A DNA stretch of 64,000 nucleotides from Streptomyces phyllanthi (GTDB lineage: Bacteria > Actinomycetota > Actinomycetes > Streptomycetales > Streptomycetaceae), in the NCBI RefSeq assembly GCF_009377205.1, contig NZ_VJZE01000005.1, positions 1-64,000 on the forward strand, given 5' to 3'. The notes under the pieces were generated by a model. It saw nothing but the letters and a program-made list of their open reading frames with translations, was not told where the DNA came from and searched no databases. Positions within the stretch are counted from its first letter, which is position 1. Each line of letters opens with the position of its first letter. The position numbers were made by a program, and so were the translations under genes. Shown in pieces: positions 66 through 46,110 of this stretch.

Positions 66-1433
66 ATGAGCGAAAACGCAGGAAACAGGTTGGACGACGC
101 ACCACTGTCGCCCTTCCACAAGAAACTGGCGCTGTACTCCTCAGGAGGCCCGTTCCTCGACGGCTACGTCCTGAGCATCATCGGCGTCGCCATGGTGCAG
201 ATCTCGCCGCAGCTGAACCTCTCCGACTCCGCCGAGGGCCTGATCGGCGCGTCCGCGCTCATCGGGATCTTCCTCGGCGCGTTCGTGGGCGGCTGGCTGA
301 CCGACAAGTTCGGCCGGCAGCTCCTGTACACCATCGACCTGATCGCCATCATCGTCTGCTCCGTCGCACAGTTCTGGGCCTCCGACCCGGTGTGGCTGTT
401 CATTCTGCGGCTGCTGATCGGCATGGCGGTCGGCGCGGACTACCCCATCGCCACCTCGCTGCTCGCCGAGTTCACTCCGCGCCGCTACCGGGGACCGCTG
501 CTGGGCGCCCTGGTGGTCATGTGGTTCGTCGGCGCCGCAGTGGCGTACATCGTCGGCGAGATCCTGCTGCAGGTCGGCGACGACGGGTGGCGGTGGATGC
601 TCGCCAGCGCCACGCTGCCCGCCACGATCATCGTGCTGCTGCGCCACGGCACGCCCGAGTCCCCGCGCTGGCTGGCCAACAAGGGCCGCGTCGAAGAGGC
701 CGAGGCCGTCCTCAAGCAGGTCTACGGCCCCGACGTGACGATCGCCGACCTGCCGGACGAGACGGGGGAGCGGGAGAACCTCGACGTCAAGGCGATCCTG
801 CGCTCCGGCTACGGCGGACGGATGCTCTACATCACGGTCTTCTGGACCTGTTCCATCGTGCCGCTCTTCGCCATCTACGCCTTCGGCCCGAAGATCCTGG
901 ACGCGCTCCAGCTCGAAGGCGGGCTCGCCAACATCGGCGAAGCCATGATCACCGTCATGTTCCTCATCGGCTGTGTGATCGCCCTGCTCTGTGTGAACCG
1001 CATGGGCCGGCGCCCCCTGGTCATCCACAGCTTCGTCTGGTCGGGCCTGGCACTGCTGCTGCTCGGCATCTTCCCGGACGCCCCCTCGGGCGTGATCATG
1101 ACCCTGTTCGCCCTGTACGCGGTCATCATCGGCGGCACCCAGATCCTCCAGTGGATCTACCCGAACGAGCTGTTCCCGACCGAGGTACGCGGCTCCGCCG
1201 TGGGCCTCGCCTCCTCCGCCAGCCGTATCGGTGCCGCCGTCGGCACCTACCTCGTCCCCATGGCCCTGACCGGCTGGGGCGTCGGCGGCACCATGCTCGC
1301 GGCCGCGGCCATCAGCCTCCTCGGCGCCGTCGTCTCCGTCGTGTGGGCGCCCGAGACACGCGGCATGGCTCTGCACGAGGCCGCCTCGCTGTCATCCAAG
1401 CCGGAGCCCGTCGGCCGCCCCGCCGCCGTCTGA
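66..1433 (+). CDS. MFS transporter, sugar/metabolite porter type
   Basis: A 455-residue integral membrane permease expected to carry a small organic solute by proton symport. Hydrophobic segments run through the whole length. The cytoplasmic loop after the second segment carries the family motif GGWLTDKFGRQ, and the loop after segment six carries PESPRWL, both typical of the sugar-porter/metabolite symporter branch of the major facilitator superfamily. The ATG is preceded by CGGAGG at a normal distance. It lies 142 bases upstream of a co-directional flavin enzyme, so the two may share a transcript. The substrate cannot be read from the sequence; the neighbours suggest an amine, imino acid or betaine. 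Confidence 0.85.
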   Translation: MSENAGNRLDDAPLSPFHKKLALYSSGGPFLDGYVLSIIGVAMVQISPQLNLSDSAEGLIGASALIGIFLGAFVGGWLTDKFGRQLLYTIDLIAIIVCSVAQFWASDPVWLFILRLLIGMAVGADYPIATSLLAEFTPRRYRGPLLGALVVMWFVGAAVAYIVGEILLQVGDDGWRWMLASATLPATIIVLLRHGTPESPRWLANKGRVEEAEAVLKQVYGPDVTIADLPDETGERENLDVKAILRSGYGGRMLYITVFWTCSIVPLFAIYAFGPKILDALQLEGGLANIGEAMITVMFLIGCVIALLCVNRMGRRPLVIHSFVWSGLALLLLGIFPDAPSGVIMTLFALYAVIIGGTQILQWIYPNELFPTEVRGSAVGLASSASRIGAAVGTYLVPMALTGWGVGGTMLAAAAISLLGAVVSVVWAPETRGMALHEAASLSSKPEPVGRPAAV

Positions 1434-1575
1434 CCTCACCGTCAGGACGGGCCATCACCTGGCGGGGCCCTGGCCGCCTCGGTCGCCGTACGGACGTCAC
1501 GCCCGCGGAGCGTTGCACGTCATGCACCACCACGGGCGCCGATCCCGTACACCCGTTCGCCCCCGGAGGTCTGGT

Positions 1576-3237
1576 GTGACTGTCGACGACCCCTTGATGA
1601 GTCCGTTCGTCCTGAAGAACCTGACTCTTCGCAACCGCATCGTCAGCACGTCCCACGAACCGGCGTACAGCGAGGACGGCCTGCCCAAGGACCGCTACCG
1701 CGCCTACCACGTCGAGAAGGCCCGCGGCGGGGTCGGGCTGACCATGATCGGCGGCAGTGCCCTGGTCAGCCGGGACAGCGCACCGGCCTTCGGCAACCTG
1801 CAGCTCTGGAAGGACGAGGCGGAGCCCTGGCTGCGCCGCCTCGCCGACGAGGTCCACGAGCAGGGCGCCGCCGTGATGACCCAGCTCACGCATCTCGGAC
1901 ACCGCACCAGCAACTACACCGACAACTGGCTCCCGGCGATCTCGGCGAGCAGCGTCCGCGAACCCGCGCACCGCGCGTTCACCAAGGCGGCCGAGCAGTG
2001 GGACCTCGACCGGGTGCTGCGGGACTTCGTCGCCGCCGCACAGCGCTGCCGGTCGGCGGGCCTCGACGGCATCGAACTCATGACGTGGGGCCACTTCCTG
2101 GACTCGTTCTGGACGCCCTTCTGGAATCACCGCGACGACGAGTACGGCGGCTCCTACGAGAACCGGATGCGCTACCCGCTCCAGGTGATCCGTGCCGTGC
2201 GGGAAGCAGTCGGACCGGAATTCGTCATCGGCGTGCGCATGACCTTCGACGAGGAGCGCGAGGGCGGTCTGGAGACGCCCGAGGCCCTGCGCATCGCCGA
2301 GGACGTCACCGAGGCCGGCATCGACTTCATCAGCCTGATCAAGGGCTCGATCGGCACCGACGCCGACCTGGCCCGCACGATCCCGCCGATGTCCACGCCC
2401 GCCTCTCCCCATCTGGAGTTCGCCGGGCGGATCAAGCAGAAGCTCTCCGTCCCGGTCATGCACGCCGCCCGGATCAGCGACGTCGCCACCGCGCGGTACG
2501 CCGTCGCCGAGGGTCTGCTCGATCTGGTCGGCATGACCAGGGCGCTGATGGCCGACCCCGAACTGCCCGACAAGGTCCGCGACGGCCGCACGGACCGGAT
2601 CCGTCCGTGCGTCGGCGCCAACATGTGCATCGACGGCATCTACGCCTCCGGCGCGGCGTTCTGCATGCACAACCCGTCCACCGGCCGCGAACTGGAGGTA
2701 CCCCAGCGCGTCGACCGTGCGCGCACACCACGGCGCGTGGCGGTGGTCGGGGCCGGGCCCGCCGGCCTGGAAGCAGCCCGGGTCCTCGCGGAGCGCGGTC
2801 ACGACGTCCATCCCTTCGAGGCCTCCGACAAGGCGGGCGGCCAGCTGCTACTGGCCTCGCTCGCCCCTCGCCGCCGCGACCTGCGCGGCATCATCGACTG
2901 GCGCACCGACGAACTCGCCCGCCTGGGCGTACCGATCTCGTGGAACACCTACGTCGAAGCCCGGACACTCCTCGCGCAGTCATGGGACGTCGTGATCGTC
3001 GCGACCGGCGGCACTCCCGCGGCACCCTCCGTTCCCGGGGCCGGCCTGGTGATCGACACCTGGGACGTCCTCGCCGGGGCGCGACGGCCGCGGGGGCGCG
3101 TGCTGGTCTACGACGACCACGGCGGCAACCAGGCACTCGACGCGGTGGAGGCCCTCGTCCGAGGAGGCGCGACAAAGCTGCTCTTCGGCGCCGCGGCCGC
3201 CGACCTGCAGCCGCGCCCCGGGGCTCAGGCCACCTGA
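1576..3237 (+). CDS. Old Yellow Enzyme/trimethylamine-dehydrogenase-like flavoprotein, C-terminus missing
   Basis: The GTG start at 1576 is chosen because CCCGGAGG lies seven bases upstream. The first ~350 residues are an FMN TIM barrel that opens with LMSPFVLKNLTLRNR. A cysteine cluster near residues 335-362 (CVGANMC, then C about 14 residues on) fits the 4Fe-4S site of the trimethylamine dehydrogenase/2,4-dienoyl-CoA reductase class. A dinucleotide-binding domain with VAVVGAGPAGLEAARVL follows. Family members usually have about 650-690 residues; this one stops at 553, just after a YDDHGG motif, so roughly the last 110-130 residues are absent. Close relatives include N-methylproline/dimethylglycine-type demethylases. 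The product is probably impaired. The demethylase role is inference from family and neighbours. Confidence 0.7.
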   Translation: MTVDDPLMSPFVLKNLTLRNRIVSTSHEPAYSEDGLPKDRYRAYHVEKARGGVGLTMIGGSALVSRDSAPAFGNLQLWKDEAEPWLRRLADEVHEQGAAVMTQLTHLGHRTSNYTDNWLPAISASSVREPAHRAFTKAAEQWDLDRVLRDFVAAAQRCRSAGLDGIELMTWGHFLDSFWTPFWNHRDDEYGGSYENRMRYPLQVIRAVREAVGPEFVIGVRMTFDEEREGGLETPEALRIAEDVTEAGIDFISLIKGSIGTDADLARTIPPMSTPASPHLEFAGRIKQKLSVPVMHAARISDVATARYAVAEGLLDLVGMTRALMADPELPDKVRDGRTDRIRPCVGANMCIDGIYASGAAFCMHNPSTGRELEVPQRVDRARTPRRVAVVGAGPAGLEAARVLAERGHDVHPFEASDKAGGQLLLASLAPRRRDLRGIIDWRTDELARLGVPISWNTYVEARTLLAQSWDVVIVATGGTPAAPSVPGAGLVIDTWDVLAGARRPRGRVLVYDDHGGNQALDAVEALVRGGATKLLFGAAAADLQPRPGAQAT

Positions 3238-3303
3238 ACCCAACCGCCGAAGGCGACAGCGGCGCGCCGATGGCTGGTGCGGGACCGCTCTCGGCGGCCG
3301 TGG

Positions 3304-4794
3304 TCAGCGGCCGTGGTTGTGCATCACGTGCTTGGTCCGTGAGTAGTCGTCGAGGGCGTACAGAGACAGGTCGCGGCCGTAGCCGGAGCCCTTGAAGCCG
3401 CCCCAGGGGACCTCGTTGGCGATGACGAGGTGGGAGTTCACCCAGACGGTGCCGGAGTCCAGGCGCGCGGCGACGGAGTGGCTGCGGCGGGCGCTCTCGG
3501 TCCACACGGAGGCGGCGAGGCCGACGGGGACGTCGTTGGCCCGGCGGACCGCTTCGTCCTCGCTGGTGAACGTCTCGACGGTGACTACGGGTCCGAAGAC
3601 CTCCTCACGGGTGACCTCCGAGCCCTCGGCCACGTCGACCAGCACGGTCGGGGCCACGAAGTAGCCCGGCCCGTCCAGGGCGCCCCCTCCGATCGCGGCC
3701 CGTGCTCCGCCGCTCAGTGCCCGGTCGAGACAGCCGAGGACGCGGTCGAAGTGCGCCTTGGAGACGAGTGGGCCGACCTCGATGTCCTCACCGGCCCGCG
3801 GGTCGCCGACGGCCAGTTCGCTGACCTCGCGGACGAGTTCCTTGACGAGCCGGTCGGCGACGGACTCGTGGACGAGGACGCGGCAGGCGGCTCCGCACTC
3901 CTGGCCGGAGTTCCAGTAGCTCGCGACGCGCAGGGCGGCGGCCGCAGCCTTGAGATCGGCGTCCTCGAAGATGACGACCGGGGCCTTGCCGCCCAGCTCC
4001 AGGTGGACGCGCTTGAGCGACTCGGCGGCTGTCCGGGCGACGGCGCGACCGCTGCGTACCGATCCGGTCAGCGCGATCATGGCCACGTCGGGGTGCTCCG
4101 CGAGCCGGGCGCCGACCACGGGGCCCGTGCCCGTCACCACGTTCACGACGCCGGGCGGCAGCAGGTCGGCCGTGAGTTCGGCGAACTTCAGGGTGGTCAG
4201 CGGGGTCTGCTCGGACGGCTTGATCACCAGGGTGTTGCCGGCGGCGAGGATCGGGGCGATCTTCCAGGCGGCCATCAGCAGGGGGTAGTTCCACGGCGTC
4301 ACGACGCCGATGACGCCGAGGGGCTCGCGCAGGATGACCGAGAGGTGGTTCTCGGCGTAGTCCCCGGCGGCCATGGTGGTGGTCGCGCGCAGGGCGCCCG
4401 CCATGAAGCGGAACGTGTCGATCGCGCTGGCCACGTCGTCGCGTGCCACCGAGAAGGGTTTGCCGGTGTTGGCGGCCTCCAGGCGCACCAGGACGTCGGT
4501 GTGCTCGGCGAGCCGGTCGGCGATCGCGTGCAGCACCTCGGACCGCTCCTTGGGCACCCGCCGCGCCCAGTCCTCCTGGGCGGCGAGTGCGGCGGCGACC
4601 GCGGTGTCGACGTCCTCGGTGGTGCCGTCGGGGATGCGGGCGATCAGCTCCTCGGTGCACGGGTCGATCACCTCGGTGAAGCTCTCGGCGGAAGCGTCGG
4701 AGAACGCGCCGTCGACGAAGAAGCGGGCCGGAGGCAGGTCGCCCTCGGCGATCAGAGGCGCGGCGTCGGCAGCGCGGTTCACGTTCGTGGTCAT
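3304..4794 (-). CDS. NAD-dependent aldehyde dehydrogenase, aminobutyraldehyde (PatD)-like
   Basis: A 496-residue soluble aldehyde dehydrogenase oxidising an aldehyde to its acid. It shows the NAD-binding region with PWNYPLLMAAWKIAP, the general-base block LELGGKAP, and the catalytic cysteine in NSGQECGAACRVLV. The GQ-C-xAACR context and the ending with VWVNSH, GSGYGRDLSLYALDDY and HVMHNH resemble gamma-aminobutyraldehyde dehydrogenases more than betaine-aldehyde enzymes. Its ATG overlaps by four bases (ATGA) the stop of a decayed upstream frame, a relic of translational coupling. It would act after an amine- or imino-acid-oxidising step. The exact substrate is uncertain. Confidence 0.85.
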   Translation of the reverse strand: MTTNVNRAADAAPLIAEGDLPPARFFVDGAFSDASAESFTEVIDPCTEELIARIPDGTTEDVDTAVAAALAAQEDWARRVPKERSEVLHAIADRLAEHTDVLVRLEAANTGKPFSVARDDVASAIDTFRFMAGALRATTTMAAGDYAENHLSVILREPLGVIGVVTPWNYPLLMAAWKIAPILAAGNTLVIKPSEQTPLTTLKFAELTADLLPPGVVNVVTGTGPVVGARLAEHPDVAMIALTGSVRSGRAVARTAAESLKRVHLELGGKAPVVIFEDADLKAAAAALRVASYWNSGQECGAACRVLVHESVADRLVKELVREVSELAVGDPRAGEDIEVGPLVSKAHFDRVLGCLDRALSGGARAAIGGGALDGPGYFVAPTVLVDVAEGSEVTREEVFGPVVTVETFTSEDEAVRRANDVPVGLAASVWTESARRSHSVAARLDSGTVWVNSHLVIANEVPWGGFKGSGYGRDLSLYALDDYSRTKHVMHNHGR

Positions 4795-5096
4795 GCCAGC
4801 TGACTCCCTTGTGTCGGGTAGCGGTCGAAGGTGTGGTCGATGTCCGGCTCCGGGGCGGGCTGGTGGCCGGTCCGGGCTGCCGCCGTGTCCTGGACGCCGG
4901 GGCCGGAGCTGGAGTAGGTGATGTCGTCGCCGTCGCGACCCGCAGCCCTGCCGGTGAGGACGTGGCCGCAGTCGCCGGCGTCCGGTCCGCCGGTGGCGAT
5001 CAGCGGGCGGCAGTGTGCGGAGCCGTCGCCGTGCCCGGGGCGTGCACGGTACGTACGACGGCGTCGTCCAGGGTTCTCAGCGCGGCTGCCCGGAAG
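4791..5096 (-). pseudogene. Remnant of an ornithine cyclodeaminase/mu-crystallin-family gene (C-terminal part)
   Basis: Reading the minus strand in the frame that ends at 4791, the stretch around 4980-4860 encodes GHVLTGRAAGRDGDDIT followed by SSSGPGVQDTAAA. This is the conserved C-terminal signature of ornithine cyclodeaminase-family enzymes (family pattern D-I-T-x5-G-x2-x-Q-D-x-A-A-A). There is no room for the remaining ~230 residues because the DapA-like gene ends at 5097. A second fragment, RTLDDAVVR, lies in another frame upstream. The family includes delta1-pyrroline-2-carboxylate reductases, which would suit the surrounding imino-acid genes. The frame's TGA overlaps the aldehyde dehydrogenase start. 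The call rests on short motifs. Confidence 0.55.
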
Positions 5097-5996
5097 TCAC
5101 CGCGCGACCGAGAGGTGAGGGAGCGCGGCGACGGCGGCGGCGATGCGCGCGCGGGTCGCGTCGTCCACCGCGAGCAGGGGCTCGCGCGGGGCGCCGACCG
5201 GCAGGCCGATCTCCTCCAGCGCGGCCTTGATCGCGGGAATGAACGGGGCGGACATCAGTGTGTCCATGAGCGGGTAGATCCGCAGCCACTGCTCGCGGGC
5301 CCGGGTCAGGTCGCCGTCGCGCAGCGCGCGGTGGACCGAGACCAGTTCGGCGGGCATGACGTTCGCGGTGCCGGCCATGACACCGGCGGCGCCCTCGGAG
5401 GTCGCCTGCAGGAGGAGGCTGTCCCAGCCGATGAAGGTGGAGATGACGTCGCCGTGGTGGTGGATGAGCTGCCCGGCCTGGGCCATGTCGGCGCTGGTGT
5501 CCTTGATGTAGCGGATGTTCTGGTGGCGGCGGGCCAGCATGCCGACGGTCTCGGGAGTGAGGTTCACGCCGGTGGCGCCCGGCAGGTTGTAGAGCATGAT
5601 CGGGATCTGCACGGCGTCGGCGACGGTGCGCAGGTAGTGCAGGGTCTCGTCGAGGGTGAGCGGCTCGTAGTACGGGGCGACGACCATGAGGACGGAGGCG
5701 CCGGCGGCTTCGGCGTGCCGGGAGAGGGCGACGGCCTCGCGCGTGCTGACGGCGCCGGTCTGGGCGACGACGGGGGCGCGGCCGGCGGTCTGGTCGATGA
5801 CGGTCTCGACGAGCAGGCGCCGCTCGTCGCCGGTCATCGCCGCGAACTCGCCGGTGGAGCCGCAGGCGACGACTCCGTCGACGCCGCCGTCGATGCTGCG
5901 GTCGACCAGGCGGCGCAGCAGCTTCTCGTCGATGGCGTCGTCGGGCGTGAACGGGGTGGCGAGCGCGGTGAGGATGCCGCTCAGGCGTGATGTCAT
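5097..5996 (-). CDS. Dihydrodipicolinate synthase (DapA)/N-acetylneuraminate lyase family protein
   Basis: A 299-residue class I aldolase-type TIM barrel. It has the pyruvate-binding GSTGE motif near residue 45, the YY-P region (APYYEPLT) and the Schiff-base lysine in RYIKDTSAD. The start MTSRLSG at 5996 is preferred because it begins exactly at the usual family N-terminus; upstream in-frame sequence is low-complexity. True lysine-biosynthesis DapA is unlikely in this catabolic setting. Members of this family deaminate delta1-pyrroline-4-hydroxy-2-carboxylate in hydroxyproline breakdown, which would fit the proline-racemase and reductase neighbours, but other keto-acid lyase activities remain possible. 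Confidence 0.8.
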   Translation of the reverse strand: MTSRLSGILTALATPFTPDDAIDEKLLRRLVDRSIDGGVDGVVACGSTGEFAAMTGDERRLLVETVIDQTAGRAPVVAQTGAVSTREAVALSRHAEAAGASVLMVVAPYYEPLTLDETLHYLRTVADAVQIPIMLYNLPGATGVNLTPETVGMLARRHQNIRYIKDTSADMAQAGQLIHHHGDVISTFIGWDSLLLQATSEGAAGVMAGTANVMPAELVSVHRALRDGDLTRAREQWLRIYPLMDTLMSAPFIPAIKAALEEIGLPVGAPREPLLAVDDATRARIAAAVAALPHLSVAR

Positions 5997-6033
5997 GGCA
6001 GGTCTCCGGGGGGTTCGCGGGAATCGGGCGGGC

Positions 6034-7416
6034 TCAGGCGCTGCGGGCGAGGCCGAGGGGAGCGGCGGTCTGTCGGTCGGTGGCGAGCAGGCTGCGGGCT
6101 TCCTGGGCGGCGGCCAGGCCGGTCTGGATGGCGGTCTCGGTGTAGAGGGTGCCGAGGTAGTCGCCGGCCAGGAGGACCCGGCCGGTACGGCGGGTGAGGA
6201 TGGGCTGGAGCTTGCCGCGGCCGGGGAAGCAGTACGGGGCACCGGTGGGCCAGCGCTGGATCCCGGCCTCGACGACGTTGCCGGCGAAGCCGGGCAGGAC
6301 CTGGTCGAGGTCGTCGAGATAGATGCGCCGGATGGTGTCGTCGTCGTGTTCGAGCAGTTCGCGTGCGAGGCTGCCCGGGGAGAAGGTCATGATGCTGCTG
6401 CCGGGGCGGCGCTCGCGCTCGTAACAGTGGACGACGTTGGACATGTTGAGCGCGATGTTGAAGGAGCGTTTCGGGGTGGCGATGCCGTAGGCGTCGTCCC
6501 AGATCTGGCGGCCGGTCTCGTCGGAGAGGAACGCGGCGCTGACGTAGGGGCCGTAGACGATCTTCGACAGGGCCTCGCGGACGTCACGGTCGAGGTCGAC
6601 GGCGATGCGGTGGCTGACGGTCGCCGGGGTGGCCAGGACCACGCAGCGGGCCTCGACCTCCTGCTCGACACCGTCCTGCCGGTAGCGGACGACGACCGAG
6701 TCCTTCTTGTGGACGATCTCGTCGACGGGCGCGCTCAGCCGGACCCGGTCCCCCAGGGCCGCGGCGATGCTCTCGGTGAGGGTGGAGGGGCCGCCGAGGA
6801 TGCTCTGGGAGAGCCCCGCGCCGATGTTCCACACCAGGCTGAAGTAGCCGACGCCCGCGCCTGCGGAGAGCTGGTCGATGTCGGCGGCGGAGCGGGTGAC
6901 CGTGGGCTTGAACAGGGCCTCGGCGTCCTCGGGCAGGTCGCCGATGAAGTCCTTGAAGGAGCGGTCGTTCATGAAGTCGTAGATCCGCTGCTGGCGCTGG
7001 GCCTCGCTCTCGCCCGGCCTGCGTCCCACGATCCGGGCGTAGCGGGCCACCTGCACCGCGACCTTCGCACCCGCCCTGACCATGCCCACCCGCGACCGCA
7101 TCGACATCGGAATGCGGAACGGGTAGCTCTCCACCCGGCCCCGAAGCAGCAGCTTGCCGTTCATCGACAGCCCGGCCAGCGAACCGGGCACCGCCACCGA
7201 GTCCACACCGGTGCTGTTCAGCAGCCACGACGTCGCCGAGTCCCCGCCGGCATAGACGTGCCCGCCCCAGTTCAGCCAGTACGGCCCCCGCCTCTCCGAC
7301 CGGATACGGCCACCCACCCGGCCCTCCGACTCCAGCACAAGCGTGTCCCAGTGCCGCAGCCGCCACCCGGCGGAGAGACCGGCGATGCCACCGCCGACGA
7401 TGACCACGTCCTTCAT
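6034..7416 (-). CDS. FAD-dependent amine-oxidase-superfamily oxidoreductase
   Basis: A 460-residue protein opening with the FAD dinucleotide fold (VVIVGGGIAGLSAGWRL). It closes with the typical FAD-contact block LLAGDYLGTLYTETAIQTG, as in protoporphyrinogen oxidase/monoamine oxidase relatives. The start MKDVVIV at 7416 has AGAGGAA just upstream; longer in-frame extensions are low-complexity. It is 37 bases upstream of the DapA-like gene on the same strand and diverges from the GntR gene, with a perfect palindromic operator in the shared promoter. It likely oxidises an amine or cyclic imino acid to feed the DapA-like enzyme and aldehyde dehydrogenase. The substrate is not deducible. Confidence 0.8.
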   Translation of the reverse strand: MKDVVIVGGGIAGLSAGWRLRHWDTLVLESEGRVGGRIRSERRGPYWLNWGGHVYAGGDSATSWLLNSTGVDSVAVPGSLAGLSMNGKLLLRGRVESYPFRIPMSMRSRVGMVRAGAKVAVQVARYARIVGRRPGESEAQRQQRIYDFMNDRSFKDFIGDLPEDAEALFKPTVTRSAADIDQLSAGAGVGYFSLVWNIGAGLSQSILGGPSTLTESIAAALGDRVRLSAPVDEIVHKKDSVVVRYRQDGVEQEVEARCVVLATPATVSHRIAVDLDRDVREALSKIVYGPYVSAAFLSDETGRQIWDDAYGIATPKRSFNIALNMSNVVHCYERERRPGSSIMTFSPGSLARELLEHDDDTIRRIYLDDLDQVLPGFAGNVVEAGIQRWPTGAPYCFPGRGKLQPILTRRTGRVLLAGDYLGTLYTETAIQTGLAAAQEARSLLATDRQTAAPLGLARSA

Positions 7417-7566
7417 GACCGTTCCTCTTCTCGATGGCGTGGGCGGGTTCCACGGATGCGGCAGGGATGCGTGACGTGCGGGGACACGCGGGCGCATCGG
7501 GGGAGTGCGGGAAGCCGCGCGGGCCCGGGGAACTACGTCCCGTATGAGTTGCCCGCCACCATAGAA

Positions 7567-7583
7567 TGTGATCACAGATCACA
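7567..7583. promoter_or_regulatory. GntR-family operator in the divergent oxidase/gntR promoter
   Basis: The sequence TGTGATCACAGATCACA is a perfect inverted repeat (TGTGATC, three-base spacer, GATCACA). It ends 20 bases before the GntR start and lies about 150 bases before the oxidase start. Its 14-base core recurs at 8974-8987 before the ABC transporter. Its size and TGT...ACA ends fit FadR/GntR-type operators, so autoregulation is likely. Confidence 0.75.
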
Positions 7584-7603
7584 CAATGGGGTGAGGGGAT
7601 CTC

Positions 7604-8383
7604 ATGGATCAGCCGGATGGAACCATCGCGGGGCCCCGTAGTCAGGGGCATGGCGGAGGCGGGTACCCGAACCCCTCCACCGACCAGGTTATTTATGATT
7701 CAGTCGTGCGTATGTCCAAACGTGTCGAGCCGTCGCCCTCCCTGACCGACAAGGTGTACGCGGTTTTGCACGAGGCGATCACGAGCGGTGAGTATCCGGC
7801 CGGATACCGTCTGCGCATCCGCGATATCGCCGCCGAAGTCGGAACCAGCGTGATGCCGGTACGCGAAGCGATCCGACGCCTCGAGGAGTCCGGCTTCGCC
7901 GAACGCGTTCCGCACAAGGGCTCGGTGGTCAAGGGCCTGAACCTCGCCGAACTGCTGCACGTCTACGACACGCGACGTCTCCTCGAGGTGGAGGCCGCGC
8001 GCCGTGGTGCCGCGCAGATCGGCTCTGTGGACGTCGCCCGTATGCGCCAGGAGTTCGAGCTGATGCAGCGCGCGATCACCGAGGGCGCCGTGGTCCCCTA
8101 CCTCGACCACGACGAGGCATTGCTGGCCATCCTCTACGAGGCGGGCGGCAACCCCGTACTGCTCAACACCATCCGCACGATGTGGCAGCACTGCCGCGCC
8201 TACAAGATCGTCGGCGCCCGGGCCGCCCTCGACGAGTCGGGCGACAACACGCTCTGGCGCTACCAGGAACGCCTGGTCGAAGCCGCGGACGCGTCTGATG
8301 CCGAGGCGGCGGCCGCCATCTCCAACGAGTCTCTCGTCGATGCCACCGACCGGATCAAAGCGCAACTCGAGTCTTACGGCTGA
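7604..8383 (+). CDS. GntR family transcriptional regulator (FadR/FCD type)
   Basis: A 259-residue DNA-binding regulator. The N-terminal winged helix spans about residues 45-110 and includes LRIRDIAAEVG and the recognition helix MPVREAIRRLEESG. An all-helical FCD-type ligand domain follows, with the metal-site pattern D-x3-R (YDTRRLLEVEAARR) and later H residues. ATG 7604 has AGGGGAT at good spacing, whereas the internal GTG 7706 and ATG 7712 lack a ribosome site, so the longer form is kept. It probably represses the divergent oxidase operon, itself and the downstream ABC transporter through the shared palindrome, released by the pathway substrate or intermediate. Confidence 0.85.
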   Translation: MDQPDGTIAGPRSQGHGGGGYPNPSTDQVIYDSVVRMSKRVEPSPSLTDKVYAVLHEAITSGEYPAGYRLRIRDIAAEVGTSVMPVREAIRRLEESGFAERVPHKGSVVKGLNLAELLHVYDTRRLLEVEAARRGAAQIGSVDVARMRQEFELMQRAITEGAVVPYLDHDEALLAILYEAGGNPVLLNTIRTMWQHCRAYKIVGARAALDESGDNTLWRYQERLVEAADASDAEAAAAISNESLVDATDRIKAQLESYG

Positions 8384-8479
8384 AGCCTGTCCCAGCAGTC
8401 CGGTGAGCCTGTTCCAGCAGCGCGGGGGCGGGCGGTGCAGTGTGTCTGCGTGTGCCTGTGGGTCATGTGGCGTGTGGTG

Positions 8480-8660
8480 AGGGTCGGGTCGCGCGTGCGG
8501 GCGACGGCCCGGACCACGTGGTGAAGGCCGTCACCGAGCTGTCGACGGTCCCGCGGGGGAGCCCTGCGCCGTTGCGGGACAACGGGGCGGGACCCGAGTG
8601 GACTCCGTCTGTGATCGCCAGACGCGTGTCGGCGTCGATGACGACCTGCGGGCCTGGATG
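8480..8660 (-). mobile_element. Decayed transposase fragment (IS5-like)
   Basis: On the minus strand two transposase-like pieces lie in different frames. VVIDADTRLAITDG at about 8645-8603 recalls the DDE-domain block around a catalytic aspartate. LGDGLHHVVRAVARTRD at about 8540-8490 recalls the C-terminal block before the end of IS5-type enzymes. The connecting ~100 residues are missing. It separates the GntR gene from the ABC transporter that carries the same operator, so an insertion and later deletion may have split a once compact locus. The match is by eye and modest. Confidence 0.45.
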
Positions 8661-8973
8661 CTGGACGATCCGGCACGCATCAGATCTTCTCCGGCCCCGG
8701 CCCCGGCCCCGGCCTCGGCTCGGTCGCCGTCGTCAGCGAAGTGAAGGTGACCGGAATCCATCCGGATGGTCACAACTGTCATGAATCCCGCGCGCCCCGG
8801 ACCTGCCTGCCGCGAGCCGGAGGGGTGGCCCTGCGACGGGTGTTGATGGCCGCGCCTCTGCTCGCCCGGCGTGATCGCGACTCTCGCGATCGGCCCCCGC
8901 AGTCGCCCATCGAATATTTCGGAGCCGCGTTTTCCCAGCTCACGAGCGGTTTCACAGATAACGAAGCAAAAAA

Positions 8974-8987
8974 GATCTGTGATCACA
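8974..8987. promoter_or_regulatory. Second GntR-type operator, upstream of the amino-acid ABC transporter
   Basis: GATCTGTGATCACA here is identical to 14 consecutive bases of the reverse complement of the site at 7567-7583, including the ten-base palindrome TGTGATCACA (8978-8987). It lies 120 bases before the substrate-binding protein start, in an unusually A-rich stretch (8960-8975) likely to hold the promoter. It places the transporter in the same predicted regulon as the oxidase operon. Confidence 0.7.
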
Positions 8988-9106
8988 TCTTGTCAGGCCT
9001 TGGTGGAGGTGCGAAGTTACCAGCCACCACCGAGCCCTGCGCCAGTGCGAACGGGGTCCGAGTCGGGATCAATCCGCCCTGGCATTTTCCGCCGAAGGAG
9101 CGCGTC

Positions 9107-10066
9107 ATGAAGCGTCTGTGTCGTCCATGTCTGGTTCACTTCGCGGCGATCGTCGGATCCGTCGCCCTGATCGGGTCGACGGCCGCGTGCGGTGGTTCGT
9201 CCGCTTCCGGGTCTTCCGGGTCTTCGCCTGCCGGGTCGGACAAGGTGTCGAAGAAGGTCGACTCGATCGCCGCCATGGTCCCCAAGTCGATCGCCCAGAA
9301 GGGGACCTTGACGATCGCCGCCGCCACCTACCCGCCCGCGGTGATCGAGCCGGCCGACGGCGCGGCTCCCACCGGCTGGGACATCGAGAACGTGCGTCAG
9401 ATCGCCGCAGTCCTCGGCTTGAAGGTCAACATCAAGATCGCCCCGTTCGACGGCATCATCGCCGGACTGCAGGCAGGCCGTTACGACGCCGCGACCGGAG
9501 AGATCTACGCGACGCCCGAGCGCACGAAGACCGTCACGTTCGTGACCAACCACGCATCGGCCGACGCCCTCATGGTCCCGGTCGGCAGCAAGATCACGAG
9601 CGCCGACACGGAAACGGACCTCTGCGGTCACACGCTGGCCGCGTCGCTCGGTTCTGCCGAGGCGGCGCTGGCCCAGAAGCTCGCGGGCAAGTGCAAGAGC
9701 GCGGGCAAGGGCGCGATCACGGTCAAGACCTTCAAGTCGCAGGCCGAGGTCAACCTCGCTCTGAAGGGCAGCCGGGTCGACGCAGCCGTGAGCAGCGCGA
9801 GCCAGGTGGCCTATGTGATGAGCCAGGCCAAGAACCAGTTCGAGCTGGTCGAGTTGCCATGGGCTCCCAAGTACAAGACCGGCTTCGTACTGGCCCGCAA
9901 CGCTGACACCGAGAAGTTCGCCAAGGCGGTTCAGGCGGCCACCGACCACCTGATCGAGAGCGGTGAGCTGCAGAAGATCCTCGACAAGTTCAACGCCGGC
10001 CAGGGGCTGATCGAGAAGGCCGAAATCCTTTCGACCGCCGCCGACGGATCGACGGGGAGCAACTGA
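9107..10066 (+). CDS. Polar amino-acid ABC transporter substrate-binding lipoprotein
   Basis: A 319-residue extracellular solute receptor. A basic, hydrophobic signal segment ends at a candidate lipidated cysteine, Cys28 (GSTAACGG; the lipobox is weak), followed by a Ser/Gly linker. The mature part is a family-3 periplasmic-binding fold: LTIAAATYPPAVI, then the hallmark GWDIENVRQIAAVLG and the later GRYDAATGEIYATPER. The ATG at 9107 follows GAAGGAG by six bases; in-frame codons further upstream run through non-coding DNA. Its stop overlaps the permease start by one base. It likely binds an amino or imino acid imported for the neighbouring catabolic enzymes. Confidence 0.88.
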   Translation: MKRLCRPCLVHFAAIVGSVALIGSTAACGGSSASGSSGSSPAGSDKVSKKVDSIAAMVPKSIAQKGTLTIAAATYPPAVIEPADGAAPTGWDIENVRQIAAVLGLKVNIKIAPFDGIIAGLQAGRYDAATGEIYATPERTKTVTFVTNHASADALMVPVGSKITSADTETDLCGHTLAASLGSAEAALAQKLAGKCKSAGKGAITVKTFKSQAEVNLALKGSRVDAAVSSASQVAYVMSQAKNQFELVELPWAPKYKTGFVLARNADTEKFAKAVQAATDHLIESGELQKILDKFNAGQGLIEKAEILSTAADGSTGSN

Positions 10067-11037
10067 TGAAAGCAGTCACCGTCACGGAGTCCACACGCCT
10101 GGACCCGTCAGCCACCCCGCCCTCGGAACTCGTGCCGATGCGGCATTCCGGTCGGGCCCTCGCCGCCCTGGTCATTCTCGTCGCCGCGGCGAGTCTGGGC
10201 TACTCCGCGATGACCAACGACAACTTCGAGTGGCCGGTCGTCTGGGAGTACCTGTTCCACCCCGAGATCATGCAGGGCCTTGGCACCACACTGATCCTCA
10301 CCGGTGTGTCCATGACTCTGGGCATCATCCTCGGCATCGTGCTGGCCGCCTGCCGGATGTCGGAGAACCGGGTGCTCTCCACGCTGTCCGGCGCGTATCT
10401 GTGGTTCTTCCGAGGTACACCGCTCCTGGTCCAGCTGATCTTCTGGTTCAACCTTTCGGCGCTCTACCCCCGGTTGTCGCTCAGTGTGCCGTTCGGCGGC
10501 CCTGAAATCGCCGGCGCGGCAACCAACGGAGTGCTGAACCTGTGGGCCGTCGCCATCATCGGCCTGACCCTCAACGAATCGGCCTACATGGCCGAGATCG
10601 TCCGTGGTGGCCTTCTCTCGGTGCCCAGACACCAGAGCGAGGCGGCCACCGCGCTCGGGATGAACCGGTGGCTGACCTTCCACAGGGTGATCCTGCCCCA
10701 GGCCCTGCGAGTGATTGTTCCCCCCACCGGCAACCAGGTCATCGGCATGCTGAAGCACTCCTCGCTCGTCAGCATCATCGCTCTCTCCGACCTGCTGTAC
10801 TCGGCGCAACTGATCTACTCGCAGAACTTCCGCACCATCCCGCTGCTCGTCGTGATCTCGATCTGGTACCTGGTGTGCACCACGGTGCTGTCCTACGCCC
10901 AGAGCCACATCGAGCGTCACTACGGGCGCGGCGTCCACGTCGGCGTGCAGCGACCCGGCGGACTCGCGAAGCTCCGCTCACTCGGCTCCCGGCTCTCGCA
11001 GCGGTCTCAGTCGAACGACAACCCGAATCCGGCGTGA
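10066..11037 (+). CDS. Amino-acid ABC transporter permease (HisM/GlnP family)
   Basis: A 323-residue membrane subunit. After one predicted N-terminal membrane segment comes the core domain, with the family start GLGTTLILTGVSMTLGIILG and the EAA cytoplasmic loop, EAATALGMNRWLTFHRVILP, which docks on the ATPase. Only one permease is present, so the transporter would be a homodimer. The start overlaps the binding-protein stop (TGATG), and the ATPase follows after 22 bases, giving a three-gene operon. The extended N-terminus (~40 residues before the first segment) is slightly longer than usual. Confidence 0.88.
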   Translation: MKAVTVTESTRLDPSATPPSELVPMRHSGRALAALVILVAAASLGYSAMTNDNFEWPVVWEYLFHPEIMQGLGTTLILTGVSMTLGIILGIVLAACRMSENRVLSTLSGAYLWFFRGTPLLVQLIFWFNLSALYPRLSLSVPFGGPEIAGAATNGVLNLWAVAIIGLTLNESAYMAEIVRGGLLSVPRHQSEAATALGMNRWLTFHRVILPQALRVIVPPTGNQVIGMLKHSSLVSIIALSDLLYSAQLIYSQNFRTIPLLVVISIWYLVCTTVLSYAQSHIERHYGRGVHVGVQRPGGLAKLRSLGSRLSQRSQSNDNPNPA

Positions 11038-11059
11038 CGAAAGGACCGGTGAAGAACCG

Positions 11060-11866
<807 letters not shown>

Positions 11867-11900
11867 CAGAAGGCGGCTTTGGACTTCGAGCGAAGCACGC

Positions 11901-12375
11901 ATGGCTTTCCAGCAAATGATCCACGCCGTCGAGACGCACCCGGGCGAGCCGATGCGTGTCATCACCGGTGGTGTCCCGAACATCCCGACGCCGCGGCCTC
12001 CTCGAGACCGGCATGATCCCGATGCAGGAGCCGGTCACCGAGTGCAGACTCGAGGCTCCGGCAGGGCTCATCGGGATCCGGGCCGAGTGCCGGGGCGGCG
12101 TGCTCCACGTGATCGCGGACGTACGGCACTTCCAAGTGTTGCAGTTGATCCCGTCGCACGGCCGGGAGATCACGTGGGTCTCCTCGCGCATCCTCCGCGC
12201 CGCGCACGACCAGTCGCCGGTCGAGCGCTCGGACCATCCGGGGGTCGGCACGACTATCACCCAGCTCTCCGGTCCTACCAGCGATCCGGCCGCCGACCGG
12301 AGGAACGCGGTGACCGTGGCGAGCGGCCCGGTCGACTTCGCCGATCCTGCGACACGCGGATACCTCCGAGCCTGA
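11901..12375 (+). pseudogene. Decayed proline racemase/hydroxyproline 2-epimerase
   Basis: Three blocks match the proline racemase family in order. From ATG 11901, HAVETHPGEPMRVITGG leads to VPNIP (family: H-T-E-GEP-R-V-x-x-GG-P-IP). After an internal deletion and frameshift near 11990 come LLETGMIPMQEPVTECRLEA and PAGL, then RRNAVTVASGPVDF. Both catalytic cysteine regions are lost: the first lies in the deleted segment, and the second, normally D-R-S-P-C-GTGT, reads FADPATRG here. The C-terminal ~80 residues are also gone. The enzyme would racemise proline or epimerise hydroxyproline, which explains the adjacent transporter and LDH2-type reductase. The family assignment is fairly secure and inactivity clear. 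Confidence 0.75.
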
Positions 12376-12533
12376 CACGTGCTCACTGATGAAGCCGTCA
12401 GTACCACTCGCAGGCTCCCGCCCGGTTCACACGCCATGGCCCGGGCGGGACCGATCCGCGGCGGTACGCATACGCTCCTCAGCTGCGCGTCCCGCGGACC
12501 GGGTCCGTACCTGTTGAAGTCGAAAGGACACCA

Positions 12534-13541
12534 ATGGCACAGCAGGTCTACGAGACCGGGACGGTCACCTTCGGCCACGATCGGCTGGTCGAGCTCTGCG
12601 CGCAGGCCGCGGAAGTCGCGGGCGCCGACCAGCGCGCCGCGCAGGCGCTCGCTCGGGCCACCGTCGCGGCAGAGAGCGCGGGCAACACCGCCGTCGGTGT
12701 CGCCCACCTGTTTGATTACCTCCGGTCCTACGAGTCCGGTCGGATCGCCGTCGGCGTGGAAGCGGAGATACTGCGACCCGCACCGGCCTGCCTCGTGGCC
12801 GACGCCCGAAACGGTCTTGCCCAGGTCGCTTTCGATGACGCCTTCACGGCTCTGCTGGAGACGACGGCACGTATCGGGACGGCGACTCTGTGGATTCGGA
12901 ACTCCTACACCTGTGGAGAGCTCGGCAACTACCCGCGCCGGCTGGCCGAAGCCGGGTTGATCGCTGTGGCGTGCGCCAACAGCCCGGCCTTGATGTCACT
13001 CGGGGGTTCCGCCACCAGGGTGCTCGGGACCAACCCGTTCGCCTATGCCGTGCCGCGCGCCGGCGCCCGGCCGTTCGTCATCGACCAGGCGTCCTCCCAG
13101 ACGGCTTATGTCAACGTGCGTCAGGCCGCACAGGCCGGAACCCCGCTTCCCGAAGGCTGGGCCGTCGGACCGGACGGAGCGGCGACCACGGACCCGAACG
13201 AGGCACTCCAGGGCGCGCTGCTCCCGTTCGGCGGTCACCGAGGAGGCAACATCGCCCTGCTCGGCGAGCTGCTGGCCACCTTGGCAGGGGCCGCCTTCTC
13301 GATCGACGCGGCCCCCTTCGACCAGGGGTTCGAGCCCCCCGGTATCGGTGTGTTCGTCCTGTGCCTGTCCCCGGACACGTTCCCCGGATCCGTGAACCGC
13401 GTGGAACACCACCTTCAACGCCTGCACGACCAGCACTCCGTACGGCTGCCCGCGTGGACCACGACCCCACAGCCCCCGAAGACCATCCAGCTCGACCGCG
13501 GCCTGGCCGACCGGCTTCTCGCAGCGACGCGTCAACGATGA
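12534..13541 (+). CDS. LDH2-family NAD(P)-dependent oxidoreductase (possible imino-acid reductase)
   Basis: A 335-residue member of the malate/L-lactate dehydrogenase 2 family. It opens with VTFGHDRLVELC and contains the AESAGNTAVGVAHLFDYL region, TLWIRNSYTCGELGNYPRRLAEAGL and GTNPFAYAVPR, typical of this fold, which lacks a Rossmann domain. Family members reduce ureidoglycolate, sulfolactate or delta1-piperideine/pyrroline-2-carboxylate. The last activity would suit the adjacent proline-racemase remnant and amino-acid transporter. AAAGGA precedes the ATG. The C-terminal ~20 residues look low-similarity. It appears intact, in contrast with its upstream neighbour. Confidence 0.75.
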   Translation: MAQQVYETGTVTFGHDRLVELCAQAAEVAGADQRAAQALARATVAAESAGNTAVGVAHLFDYLRSYESGRIAVGVEAEILRPAPACLVADARNGLAQVAFDDAFTALLETTARIGTATLWIRNSYTCGELGNYPRRLAEAGLIAVACANSPALMSLGGSATRVLGTNPFAYAVPRAGARPFVIDQASSQTAYVNVRQAAQAGTPLPEGWAVGPDGAATTDPNEALQGALLPFGGHRGGNIALLGELLATLAGAAFSIDAAPFDQGFEPPGIGVFVLCLSPDTFPGSVNRVEHHLQRLHDQHSVRLPAWTTTPQPPKTIQLDRGLADRLLAATRQR

Positions 13542-13587
13542 AGGAGCGCACCACCACGCACGACGTCGTCATCGGTCTCATGTCCGA

Positions 13588-13629
13588 CCAGGCCAGAAGT
13601 CGCAGTAACCAGGCCAGAAGTCGCAGTAA
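13588..13629. repeat. Two perfect 21-bp tandem copies
   Basis: Positions 13588-13608 and 13609-13629 are identical 21-base units beginning CCAGGCCAGAAG and ending CGCAGTAA. They sit in the intergenic space after the LDH2 gene. A frame starting at ATG 13539 would encode a seven-residue repeat here, but it has no supporting homology and is not called as a gene. Confidence 0.85.
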
Positions 13630-13820
13630 AGAGATCTTCGAAGGGCCGAAGGCGTACCGTAACGCGGGCGGCAGCATCTCGCTGTTCCGGCCGGAGGCCA
13701 ACGCGCGCCGGTTCGCACGGTCCACAGGACTGAACTCGCGGGGCACGGTGAGCTGTAGGCCGCAGCACCGGCGGTCGGGCACAGGCACGGGCAATCGCGG
13801 GTGCCTGGTGGGACAGCCGT

Positions 13821-13850
13821 GGCCCCGCGCCCAGGTTCGGTTGCGGGGCC
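13821..13850. terminator. Hairpin between convergent genes
   Basis: GGCCCCGC (13821-13828) pairs with GCGGGGCC (13843-13850) across a 14-base loop. It lies 16 bases after the end of the leftward inositol operon and beyond the rightward LDH2 gene, so it probably terminates transcription from both sides. There is no T-run, as is common in high-GC actinobacteria. Confidence 0.6.
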
Positions 13851-13866
13851 GTACAACGAGGGTGGG

Positions 13867-45768: not shown

Positions 45769-46110
45769 TCATGCTGGCGAGGACCGCGCGGCCGTCAAGG
45801 GCCAGGTGCCGACCGCCCGCAGCCCGGTCCGCGCCGCCCCTATCTCGGCGGCGACCGCCTCGACGACCTCGACAGTGAATCGGATGCGGTTCTCGATGCC
45901 GCCGCCGTAGACGTCGGTGCGGTGGTTGGTGTTGGGGGCGAGGAACTGGTGCAGCAGATAGCCGTTGGCGCTGTGCACCTCGACGCCGACGAAGCCCGCC
46001 TCGACAGCTCTGCGCGCGGCGGTGGTGAAGTCCGCGATCGTGGTCCGGACGTCGTCGGCGGTCATCTCGCGAGGGGTGACGGACTCCTGCTTGCCGACGG
46101 CGGTGCATCT
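45769..46110 (-). pseudogene. Fragment of an Old Yellow Enzyme (NADH:flavin oxidoreductase)
   Basis: The minus strand encodes TPREMTADDVRTTIADFTTA, then AGFVGVEVHSANGYLLHQFL, NTNHRTDVYGG and IENRIRFTVEVVEAVAAEIG. This is the central barrel block of OYE enzymes with the HGANGYL substrate-binding region (here HSANGYL). Both ends are lost: upstream it meets an integrase fragment at about 46104, and downstream it ends in unrelated residues. About one third of the normal ~360-residue protein remains. Confidence 0.82.

What the first reader, a model, noticed from the sequence alone, without database searches (positions are those of the whole stretch)
66..13541. A decaying catabolic island for proline, hydroxyproline or N-methylproline (betaine)
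A demethylase-like flavoprotein, aldehyde dehydrogenase, DapA-family enzyme, FAD oxidase, amino-acid importer and LDH2-type reductase lie together with remnants of a proline racemase and an ornithine-cyclodeaminase-family enzyme. These are the enzyme classes used for betaine demethylation, hydroxyproline epimerisation and pyrroline-carboxylate processing. Three members are visibly broken, giving a snapshot of a pathway being lost or remodelled.
Basis: inference. Interest (0 to 1): 0.66.

Follow-up and report, generated by a model that had tools for sequence, protein, structure and literature searches.

The report
Rebuilt hydroxyproline / proline-betaine catabolic island
A Streptomyces gene cluster, probably for eating hydroxyproline or methylated proline (a plant osmolyte), keeps an intact three-enzyme core while its side genes are in ruins, and the core uses an unexpected type of oxidase that could be tested directly.

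Summary
Window 66-13541 carries a transporter, a StcD-like flavoprotein, ALDH, a DapA-family enzyme, a FAD amine oxidase (FADox), GntR, an amino-acid ABC importer and an Ldh2 reductase, with remnants of OCD (4824-5086) and proline racemase (11900-12375). Broken members: OCD, racemase, flavoprotein (533 of 677 aa). Most complete relative, Streptomyces sp. TRM68416 (L050): ATPase-Perm-SBP-GntR | MFS-FADox-DapA-OCD-ALDH-OYE-ProR. Of 50 actinobacterial loci found by FADox, 49 hold DapA and 45 ALDH. Neighbours in some loci (Stc2-like Rieske, betaine importers, sarcosine oxidase, racemase) favour proline-betaine/hydroxyproline catabolism. 'Decaying' is half right: the core is whole, with dN/dS typical of purifying selection, and the locus is a composite. 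A 28-bp ALDH scar before the flavoprotein points to a deleted first core copy; the second lies inverted and looks mosaic. New points: FADox has a monoamine-oxidase fold, not the DAAO family known for hydroxyproline, and follows the racemase in four loci; the Ldh2 belongs to a conserved subfamily lacking SHG. All substrates are unproven.

The parts
66..1433 (+). MFS transporter (455 aa), intact
   Evidence: PF00083 9.9e-62; 87-92% identical to the MFS that precedes FADox in many Streptomyces loci
1515..1542 (+). scar: 3' end of an ALDH gene, upstream of the flavoprotein, read as left from a deleted first core copy
   Evidence: blastn of the window against L048/L050: similarity resumes at 1515 inside the 3' end of their ALDH gene; the letters read like the ALDH C-terminus, stop codon changed
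1576..3237 (+). OYE/FMN-TIM-barrel plus NAD(P)-domain flavoprotein, StcD-like; C-terminally truncated (533 of 677 aa homologous)
   Evidence: 91-92% to L048/L050; the full-length L050 relative is ~50% identical to the only place in an S. meliloti pSymB record at E<=1e-40
3304..4794 (-). aldehyde dehydrogenase, intact
   Evidence: PF00171 1.5e-161; PRK13473 616.1 bits, cut-off 615
4824..5086 (-). remnant of an ornithine-cyclodeaminase/mu-crystallin family gene (large internal deletion)
   Evidence: tblastn 3e-8 against L050 OCD; blastn two pieces against L058 OCD
5097..5990 (-). DapA/DHDPS-family enzyme, intact; Pyr4H2C deaminase type by inference
   Evidence: PF00701 8.5e-74 in the longer frame; its clade includes a copy beside a proline racemase on a Pseudonocardia plasmid
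6034..7419 (-). FADox: amine-oxidase-family (PF01593) flavoenzyme, intact
   Evidence: AF2 model pLDDT 85.8, MAO/putrescine-oxidase/LAAO-type fold
7604..8383 (+). GntR-FCD regulator, intact
   Evidence: PF07729/PF00392; 79-83% in L050, L051, L056, L060
8384..8929 (+). unaligned spacer, longer than in L050, L051, L056, L060; no protein family found
   Evidence: no Pfam match at E<=5 for the 114-aa frame
9107..10066 (+). amino-acid ABC importer, substrate-binding protein
   Evidence: PF00497 in the longer frame; 76-84% in L050, L051, L056, L060
10066..11037 (+). ABC importer permease
   Evidence: PF00528
11060..11866 (+). ABC importer ATPase
   Evidence: PF00005
11900..12375 (+). proline-racemase-family pseudogene: frame change, internal deletions, both catalytic positions gone
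12534..13541 (+). Ldh2/MLD2-family reductase, intact, subfamily without the SHG motif
   Evidence: PF02615 1.4e-70; best PDB hit delta1-piperideine-2-carboxylate reductase 5.3e-37; motif

Best explanation
A catabolic island for 4-hydroxyproline-type imino acids and their N-methylated (betaine) forms. Inferred route: uptake by MFS and ABC importer; in complete versions the StcD-like flavoprotein removes an N-methyl group and the racemase-family enzyme (Ser/Cys pair, as in one 4-hydroxyproline epimerase family) sets the alpha carbon. FADox oxidises the ring to a pyrroline-carboxylate, the DapA-family enzyme deaminates it to alpha-ketoglutarate semialdehyde, and ALDH gives alpha-ketoglutarate. 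OCD or Ldh2 reduces pyrroline-2-carboxylate to proline (side branch). In this strain flavoprotein, epimerase and OCD are broken, Ldh2 may stand in for OCD, and the core is whole; a separate hydroxyproline-type operon on contig C332 could cover the epimerase. The locus was rebuilt from two island copies. Shown: gene content, remnants, synteny, scar and rearranged order. Inferred: every reaction and the history.
For: Complete layout L050 and related loci. DapA in 49 of 50 and ALDH in 45 of 50 FADox loci. Racemase just upstream of FADox (within ~235 bp) in L067, its near-copy L068, L070 and L078: the epimerase-oxidase-DapA-ALDH set with FADox in the oxidase place. Pseudonocardia plasmid L105: FADox-DapA and, about 4.5 kb on, racemase-DapA; the two DapA are sisters (100/97). 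Agrobacterium plasmid L103: a 37% FADox relative with two DHDPS genes, a racemase and an amino-acid ABC importer. Stc2-like Rieske of L072 (5e-110 to 3vca) with OpuA and FdhA beside FADox; same gene types in L037 by Pfam. Against 40 control windows: sarcosine oxidase 15 of 49 vs 0, SHMT 14 vs 2, OYE 7 vs 0, racemase 8 vs 0, OpuA 7 vs 0. Enzyme classes match PMC4113996 (passages).
Against: No enzyme here has been assayed. FADox is not of the DAAO family used for c4DHyp, and L080 and L069 carry other DapA-racemase sets (with DAO and ALDH in L080) about 5-6 kb from FADox, so FADox may serve another substrate. ALDH is labelled aminobutyraldehyde-type. Racemase, OCD and OYE are absent from most of 21 Streptomyces loci. 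Rieske (3 of 49), FdhA (2), OCD (6 vs 1), Ldh2 (2) and SdaA (4) are not significantly enriched over all loci. In L036 FADox itself is broken. Pantoea L104's 36% FADox relative has no DapA or racemase annotated nearby. No full-length Stc2-like Rieske was seen in the own genome (best 42% over residues 14-209), so the first betaine step is unassigned. The C332 operon makes a second hydroxyproline locus redundant.
Confidence: 0.58

Rival explanations
1. Polyamine/amine catabolism: FADox is a putrescine-oxidase-like enzyme, ALDH oxidises the aminoaldehyde, DapA is incidental.
For: ALDH passes the PRK13473 aminobutyraldehyde cut-off (616.1 vs 615) and its best PDB hit is gamma-aminobutyraldehyde dehydrogenase; FADox fold matches MAO and putrescine oxidase.
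Against: DapA accompanies FADox in 49 of 50 loci and a racemase lies just upstream of FADox in four; the ALDH of the DAO-DapA-racemase set in L080 scores even higher on the same family (723.5 bits), so the label does not point to putrescine; FADox is only 20-25% identical to putrescine and bacterial monoamine oxidases in the fold alignments.
Confidence: 0.1
2. Retro-aldol route: FADox makes 4-hydroxy-2-oxo-5-(methyl)aminopentanoate, DapA acts as an aldolase giving pyruvate and (N-methyl)aminoacetaldehyde, ALDH gives glycine or sarcosine, which neighbouring sarcosine oxidase, SHMT and serine dehydratase consume.
For: Sarcosine oxidase in 14 of 19 and SHMT in 13 of 19 Streptomyces core loci vs 0 and 2 of 40 control windows; SdaA in 4 of 49 vs 0 (not significant); aminoaldehyde-type ALDH; the DHDPS family contains aldolases (YagE, NanA among PDB hits).
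Against: The DapA-family enzyme of known hydroxyproline pathways is a deaminase (PMC4113996, PMC6608401, passages); the linkage to sarcosine oxidase is nearly confined to Streptomyces (1 of 30 other loci).
Confidence: 0.1
3. The whole island is dead in this strain and only a fossil.
For: Three broken members, rearranged order.
Against: MFS, ALDH, DapA, FADox, GntR, SBP, permease, ATPase and Ldh2 are open frames of full length with pairwise dN/dS mostly 0.12-0.36; such averages cannot exclude a very recent loss.
Confidence: 0.12
4. Unrelated catabolic genes that happen to lie together.
For: Ldh2 and the racemase remnant lie at the far end; the layout differs from L050.
Against: The same gene families cluster in other Actinobacteria with enrichment over control windows.
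Confidence: 0.03

Closest known systems
trans-4-hydroxy-L-proline pathway cluster of Streptomyces coelicolor (SCO6289-SCO6293 with HypR; PMC6608401, passages seen)
   Same: DapA-family deaminase class, racemase family, GntR-FCD regulator class, imino-acid catabolism in Streptomyces
   Different: There the oxidase is a three-subunit D-hydroxyproline dehydrogenase; here a single PF01593 flavoenzyme. The window DapA is only 33% identical to the DapA of the own genome's C332 operon, used as stand-in for SCO6292. That operon is separate from this island.
Proline-racemase-superfamily neighbourhoods of 4HypE and t3HypD (eLife 2014 e03275, PMC4113996, passages seen)
   Same: Racemase + DHDPS + ALDH + OCD or MLD2; a Ser/Cys racemase like one 4HypE family; whole relatives of the broken racemase keep SGGN
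   Different: DAAO is replaced by an amine-oxidase-family FADox; the Ldh2 lacks the SHG motif; racemase and OCD are remnants here
Stachydrine (proline betaine) catabolism of Sinorhizobium meliloti (stcD, Stc2)
   Same: OYE-type flavoprotein whose full-length relative is ~50% identical to the only place in a pSymB record at E<=1e-40; stcD is on pSymB; Rieske genes at 56-63% to the L068 one beside FADox in L058 and L072, the L072 one best matching PDB 3vca/4qup, which I recall as Stc2
   Different: No hit record labels the gene stcD: the match is by elimination. The window copy is truncated and the own genome showed no full-length Stc2-like Rieske
Delta1-piperideine-2-carboxylate/pyrroline-2-carboxylate reductase (DpkA, PDB 1wtj)
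   Same: Best PDB hit of the Ldh2 (5.3e-37)
   Different: SHG and a second motif of classical members are replaced by [VLM]G..H and [SC][YF][TS].GEL in nine aligned members, window included

Membership tests
4-hydroxyproline (4HypE-type) catabolic cluster | racemase-family epimerase | tested here: not met
   only a remnant, both catalytic positions deleted; whole in L050, L057, L061, L078
4-hydroxyproline (4HypE-type) catabolic cluster | DAAO-family oxidase or heteromeric D-hydroxyproline dehydrogenase | tested here: not met
   FADox is PF01593 over its length; PF01266 matches only the dinucleotide-binding start; MAO-type fold
4-hydroxyproline (4HypE-type) catabolic cluster | DHDPS-family Pyr4H2C deaminase | tested here: inconclusive
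   family met; its clade holds a racemase-linked copy; activity unknown
4-hydroxyproline (4HypE-type) catabolic cluster | alpha-ketoglutarate semialdehyde dehydrogenase | tested here: inconclusive
   ALDH superfamily met; NCBIfam label is aminobutyraldehyde DH, AlphKGSA model below cut-off; the same label falls on the L080 DAO-DapA-racemase cluster's ALDH
N-methylproline demethylase StcD | full-length OYE plus NAD(P)-domain protein of ~677 aa | tested here: not met
   533 residues homologous, then a short tail without similarity
N-methylproline demethylase StcD | demethylase activity | not testable with these tools
   needs assay
t3-hydroxyproline pathway (t3HypD + Pyr2C reductase) | racemase-family dehydratase with Thr at the second catalytic position | tested here: not met
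   whole orthologues L050, L057, L061 carry Ser/Cys; the window remnant has lost both positions
t3-hydroxyproline pathway (t3HypD + Pyr2C reductase) | OCD or MLD2 reductase | tested here: inconclusive
   OCD broken; Ldh2 whole but divergent
classical Ldh_2 / DpkA enzymes | SHG motif (its catalytic role is recalled, not from a call) | tested here: not met
   AVG in the window copy; the eight other members aligned also lack it, the classical Streptomyces enzymes keep it

The most novel reading that the evidence does not exclude
FADox-DapA-ALDH is an undescribed route, spread over many actinobacterial genera, in which a monoamine-oxidase-fold flavoenzyme oxidises the hydroxyproline ring directly, as the L-isomer or the N-methyl form, so that epimerase (and perhaps demethylase) become dispensable. 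That would explain why racemase, flavoprotein and OCD are missing or broken so often while DapA and ALDH stay with FADox, and possibly why sarcosine oxidase and SHMT sit beside it in Streptomyces, if an N-methylated fragment is released.
Probability: 0.22. Interest if true: 0.6.

Novelty: new variant of a known kind. Interest (0 to 1): 0.45.

Why it matters
If FADox is a hydroxyproline or N-methylhydroxyproline oxidase, it is a different-family solution to a known step, held by diverse Actinobacteria, and would help explain their use of plant betaines. The divergent Ldh2 subfamily, beside OYE flavoproteins or betaine importers in several loci, is a second enzyme whose substrate can be guessed and tested. 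The locus also shows a catabolic island pruned and re-spliced around a kept core.

Tried and rejected
The PF02423 search of the own genome did not see the OCD remnant; targeted comparisons did. Pfam found nothing at E<=5 in the frames 8440-8781 and 13541-13897, so an IS origin of the spacer, which I first read by eye, is not claimed. Residues in the DapA alignment gave me no way to tell deaminase from aldolase, so the retro-aldol rival stays open. The DapA tree has long branches and a midpoint root; only the L105 pair and the Streptomyces grouping are used. A class-level search for the Ldh2 found none but the own copy in 296 genomes at E<=1e-60; the genus search found 47-48% relatives in 2 of 199 and weaker ones in others (35 of 199 at E<=1e-20, own included). 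No formal recombination test was run for the mosaic pattern. The 50 loci were found with FADox (two peptide patterns), so they are no census, and FADox retention in them is by construction; 5 further hits (L096-L100) were weak and dropped. Neighbours were sought only in the stretch fetched, and some stretches end at contig ends. L068 dropped as a near-copy of L067; the 40 control windows (20 kb) lie at round coordinates I chose, all in Streptomyces genomes listed with one contig, whereas 30 of 49 core loci are from other genera. rows not used: L062 GntR (2.02, mispaired) and L061 MFS at 45% (paralogue); SBP and permease against L060 reach 0.54 and 0.41. Ldh2 neighbours: an OYE-type gene lies next to it in L061, L161, L163, L164 and within 5 kb in L108, OpuA genes ~5 kb off in L066; none was seen in L107, L160, L162, L038, L039. 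Papers: listings 39, 40, 49, 59, 60, 86, 87, 109 showed no title or abstract describing a PF01593 hydroxyproline oxidase; PMC11337228 held none of the enzyme words sought. This is no proof of absence from print.
Full report
Check of the observation. The window is the start of contig C555 of a 10.27-Mb draft genome in 939 contigs, Streptomyces by its relatives. Family scans identify an MFS transporter (66-1433 +), an OYE/FMN flavoprotein with an NAD(P) domain (1576-3237 +), an ALDH (3304-4794 -), a DapA-family enzyme (5097-5990 -), a PF01593 flavoenzyme, here FADox (6034-7419 -), a GntR-FCD regulator (7604-8383 +), an amino-acid ABC importer (9107-11866 +) and an Ldh2-family reductase (12534-13541 +). 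The proline-racemase remnant is at 11900-12375. The OCD remnant is at 4824-5086, between DapA and ALDH: blastn against L058 joins the first ~60 bp to the last ~210 bp of that gene. The flavoprotein follows its 677-aa relatives for 533 residues and then stops.

Relatives. A FADox alignment found 50 loci in actinobacterial genomes (L046-L095). DapA lies with FADox in 49 of 50; an ALDH of at least 60% identity is present in 45 of 50 (missing in L051 and L077, where the contig ends, and in L065, L071, L091). The most complete island, L050 (Streptomyces sp. TRM68416), reads ATPase-, Perm-, SBP-, GntR-, MFS+, FADox+, DapA+, OCD+, ALDH+, OYE+, ProR+. Among 21 Streptomyces loci FADox is whole in 20 (broken in L036) and DapA in 21; OYE is whole in 3, fragmentary in 4, not found in 14; OCD whole in 5, broken in 1, not found in 15; racemase whole in 3, not found in 18; Ldh2 whole in 1, a trace in 1. 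Some loci are cut by contig ends (L051, L057). The flavoprotein fragments of L054, L055, L057, L036 and the window cover different parts, so its loss happened more than once. FADox retention is partly by construction, since FADox was the query. In an even sample of the genus, 4 of 198 other genomes held a DapA of 67% identity or more, so the island is uncommon.

A composite, not a simple ruin. Window 2-1481 matches the MFS region of L048 up to just before FADox; from 1515 similarity resumes inside the 3' end of an ALDH gene and runs into the flavoprotein. The letters at 1515-1542 read as the ALDH C-terminus with the stop codon changed, while the intact ALDH at 3304-4794 has its own C-terminus. 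The simplest reading is that a first FADox-to-ALDH block was deleted from between MFS and flavoprotein, and that a second, inverted block now abuts the flavoprotein's 3' end. That block resembles L060, where GntR faces FADox without an MFS. It also looks mosaic: of eight loci compared in 200-bp steps, the first 1200 bp of FADox are closest to L046, L048, L049 or L050 (6 of 6 steps), and further down L058 is closest in 9 of 14 steps (no formal recombination test). Pairwise dN/dS of the whole genes, and of the retained part of the flavoprotein (0.14-0.16), is mostly 0.12-0.36 (SBP and permease reach 0.54 and 0.41 against L060). This fits purifying selection and a recent truncation of the flavoprotein, but averages of this kind cannot prove present function.

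What it likely does. eLife 2014 e03275 (PMC4113996; passages seen) ties racemase-family enzymes to DAAO, DHDPS and ALDH for 4-hydroxyproline and to OCD or MLD2 (the Ldh2 superfamily) for 3-hydroxyproline, and describes a Ser/Cys 4-hydroxyproline epimerase. The whole orthologues of the window's racemase (L050, L057, L061) carry Ser/Cys with SGGN. OCD of L050 is closest in the PDB to a pyrroline-2-carboxylate reductase (1.9e-37), the Ldh2 to a piperideine-2-carboxylate reductase. The flavoprotein's full-length relative is about 50% identical to the only place in an S. meliloti pSymB record at E<=1e-40, and stcD, an N-methylproline demethylase gene, is on pSymB (PMC12239276, passages); no record labels it stcD, so this is by elimination. 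L072's Rieske enzyme near FADox matches PDB 3vca and 4qup (5e-110 and 6.2e-110), which I recall as the stachydrine demethylase Stc2; with it come OpuA genes, and in L037 (G108) also a zinc alcohol-dehydrogenase-family protein that I take for FdhA. Against 40 control windows, core loci are enriched for sarcosine oxidase (15 of 49 vs 0), SHMT (14 vs 2), OYE (7 vs 0), racemase (8 vs 0) and OpuA (7 vs 0); Rieske (3 vs 0), FdhA (2 vs 0), OCD (6 vs 1), Ldh2 (2 vs 0) and SdaA (4 vs 0) are not significant over all loci.

The odd oxidase. FADox is a PF01593 protein; an AlphaFold2 model from 34 sequences (mean pLDDT 85.8, pTM 0.85) matches monoamine, cyclohexylamine, putrescine, L-amino-acid, protoporphyrinogen and nicotine oxidases (Z 32.5 to about 29, rmsd 3.1-4.2 A over 360-419 residues). 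Fold does not give the substrate. Yet in L067, its near-copy L068, L070 and L078 the racemase lies just upstream of FADox-DapA, where a DAAO-type oxidase stands in known clusters; the racemases of L067 and L070 have Gly at the second catalytic position, so their function is less clear. A Pseudonocardia plasmid (L105) has FADox-DapA and, about 4.5 kb on, a racemase-DapA pair, the two DapA copies being sisters. An Agrobacterium plasmid (L103) has a 37% FADox relative with two DHDPS genes and a racemase. Against this, L080 and L069 keep DapA-racemase genes of other types (with DAO and ALDH in L080) some 5-6 kb away, so FADox may act on a different isomer or on an N-methylated substrate; and the FADox relative of Pantoea L104 (36%) has no such neighbours annotated. 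A Staphylococcus equorum plasmid carries ALDH-DapA-FADox, FADox 55% identical but ALDH 37% and DapA 30%.

The odd reductase. The Ldh2 lacks the SHG motif of classical members; nine aligned members from Streptomyces, Nocardioides and Alphaproteobacteria, window included, share [VLM]G..H and [SC][YF][TS].GEL instead, while classical Streptomyces enzymes in the alignments keep SHG. An OYE-type gene stands right before it in L061, L161, L163 and L164 (in the last three a distant one, 33-34%) and within 5 kb in Rhizobium L108 (49%); proline/glycine-betaine ABC genes are annotated in L108 and L161. In L107, L160, L162, L038 and L039 no OYE was seen near it. In the window the Ldh2 may have taken over from the broken OCD; this is inference.

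Own genome context. Contig C332 carries frames that read, by eye and order, as oxidoreductase (DAO-like), oxidoreductase, DapA and proline racemase, the order of the S. coelicolor operon SCO6289-6293 (racemase by PF05544; DapA by tblastn; frames; PMC6608401 passages). The island is thus probably not the strain's only hydroxyproline locus, which may be why its racemase could be lost. No second FADox at E<=1e-10 and no full-length Stc2-like Rieske were found in the genome.

Verdict. A real, partly broken and rebuilt hydroxyproline/proline-betaine type catabolic island with a whole core: a new variant of a known kind, whose central oxidase and reductase are the points worth testing.

Noticed in passing
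13541-13760 (+): A fragment resembling branched-chain aminotransferase IlvE: 56% identical over 41 residues to an ilvE-like frame on contig C20, though Pfam saw nothing; next to a directly repeated ~21-bp stretch (by eye).
   Followed up: partly
L040 (G000 contig C332) 3673-8432: The same genome has a separate set of frames in the order of the S. coelicolor hydroxyproline operon.
   Followed up: partly
L061, L070, L075, L079, L080, L082, L084, L092: A second PF01593-type flavoenzyme lies near FADox (Pfam confirmed for L061 and L075).
   Followed up: no
L102 (Staphylococcus equorum plasmid) 5584-9380: ALDH-DapA-FADox on a firmicute plasmid: FADox 55% identical, but ALDH 37% and DapA 30%.
   Followed up: no
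L109 (S. meliloti pSymB) 5995-8677: The StcD-like flavoprotein gene is followed by a gene annotated as DMSP lyase.
   Followed up: no
45877-46053 (-): Another OYE-family stretch in the window (44% over 59 residues to the flavoprotein).
   Followed up: no
L067, L070 racemase genes: Proline-racemase-family proteins with Ser and Gly at the two catalytic positions, just upstream of FADox.
   Followed up: no
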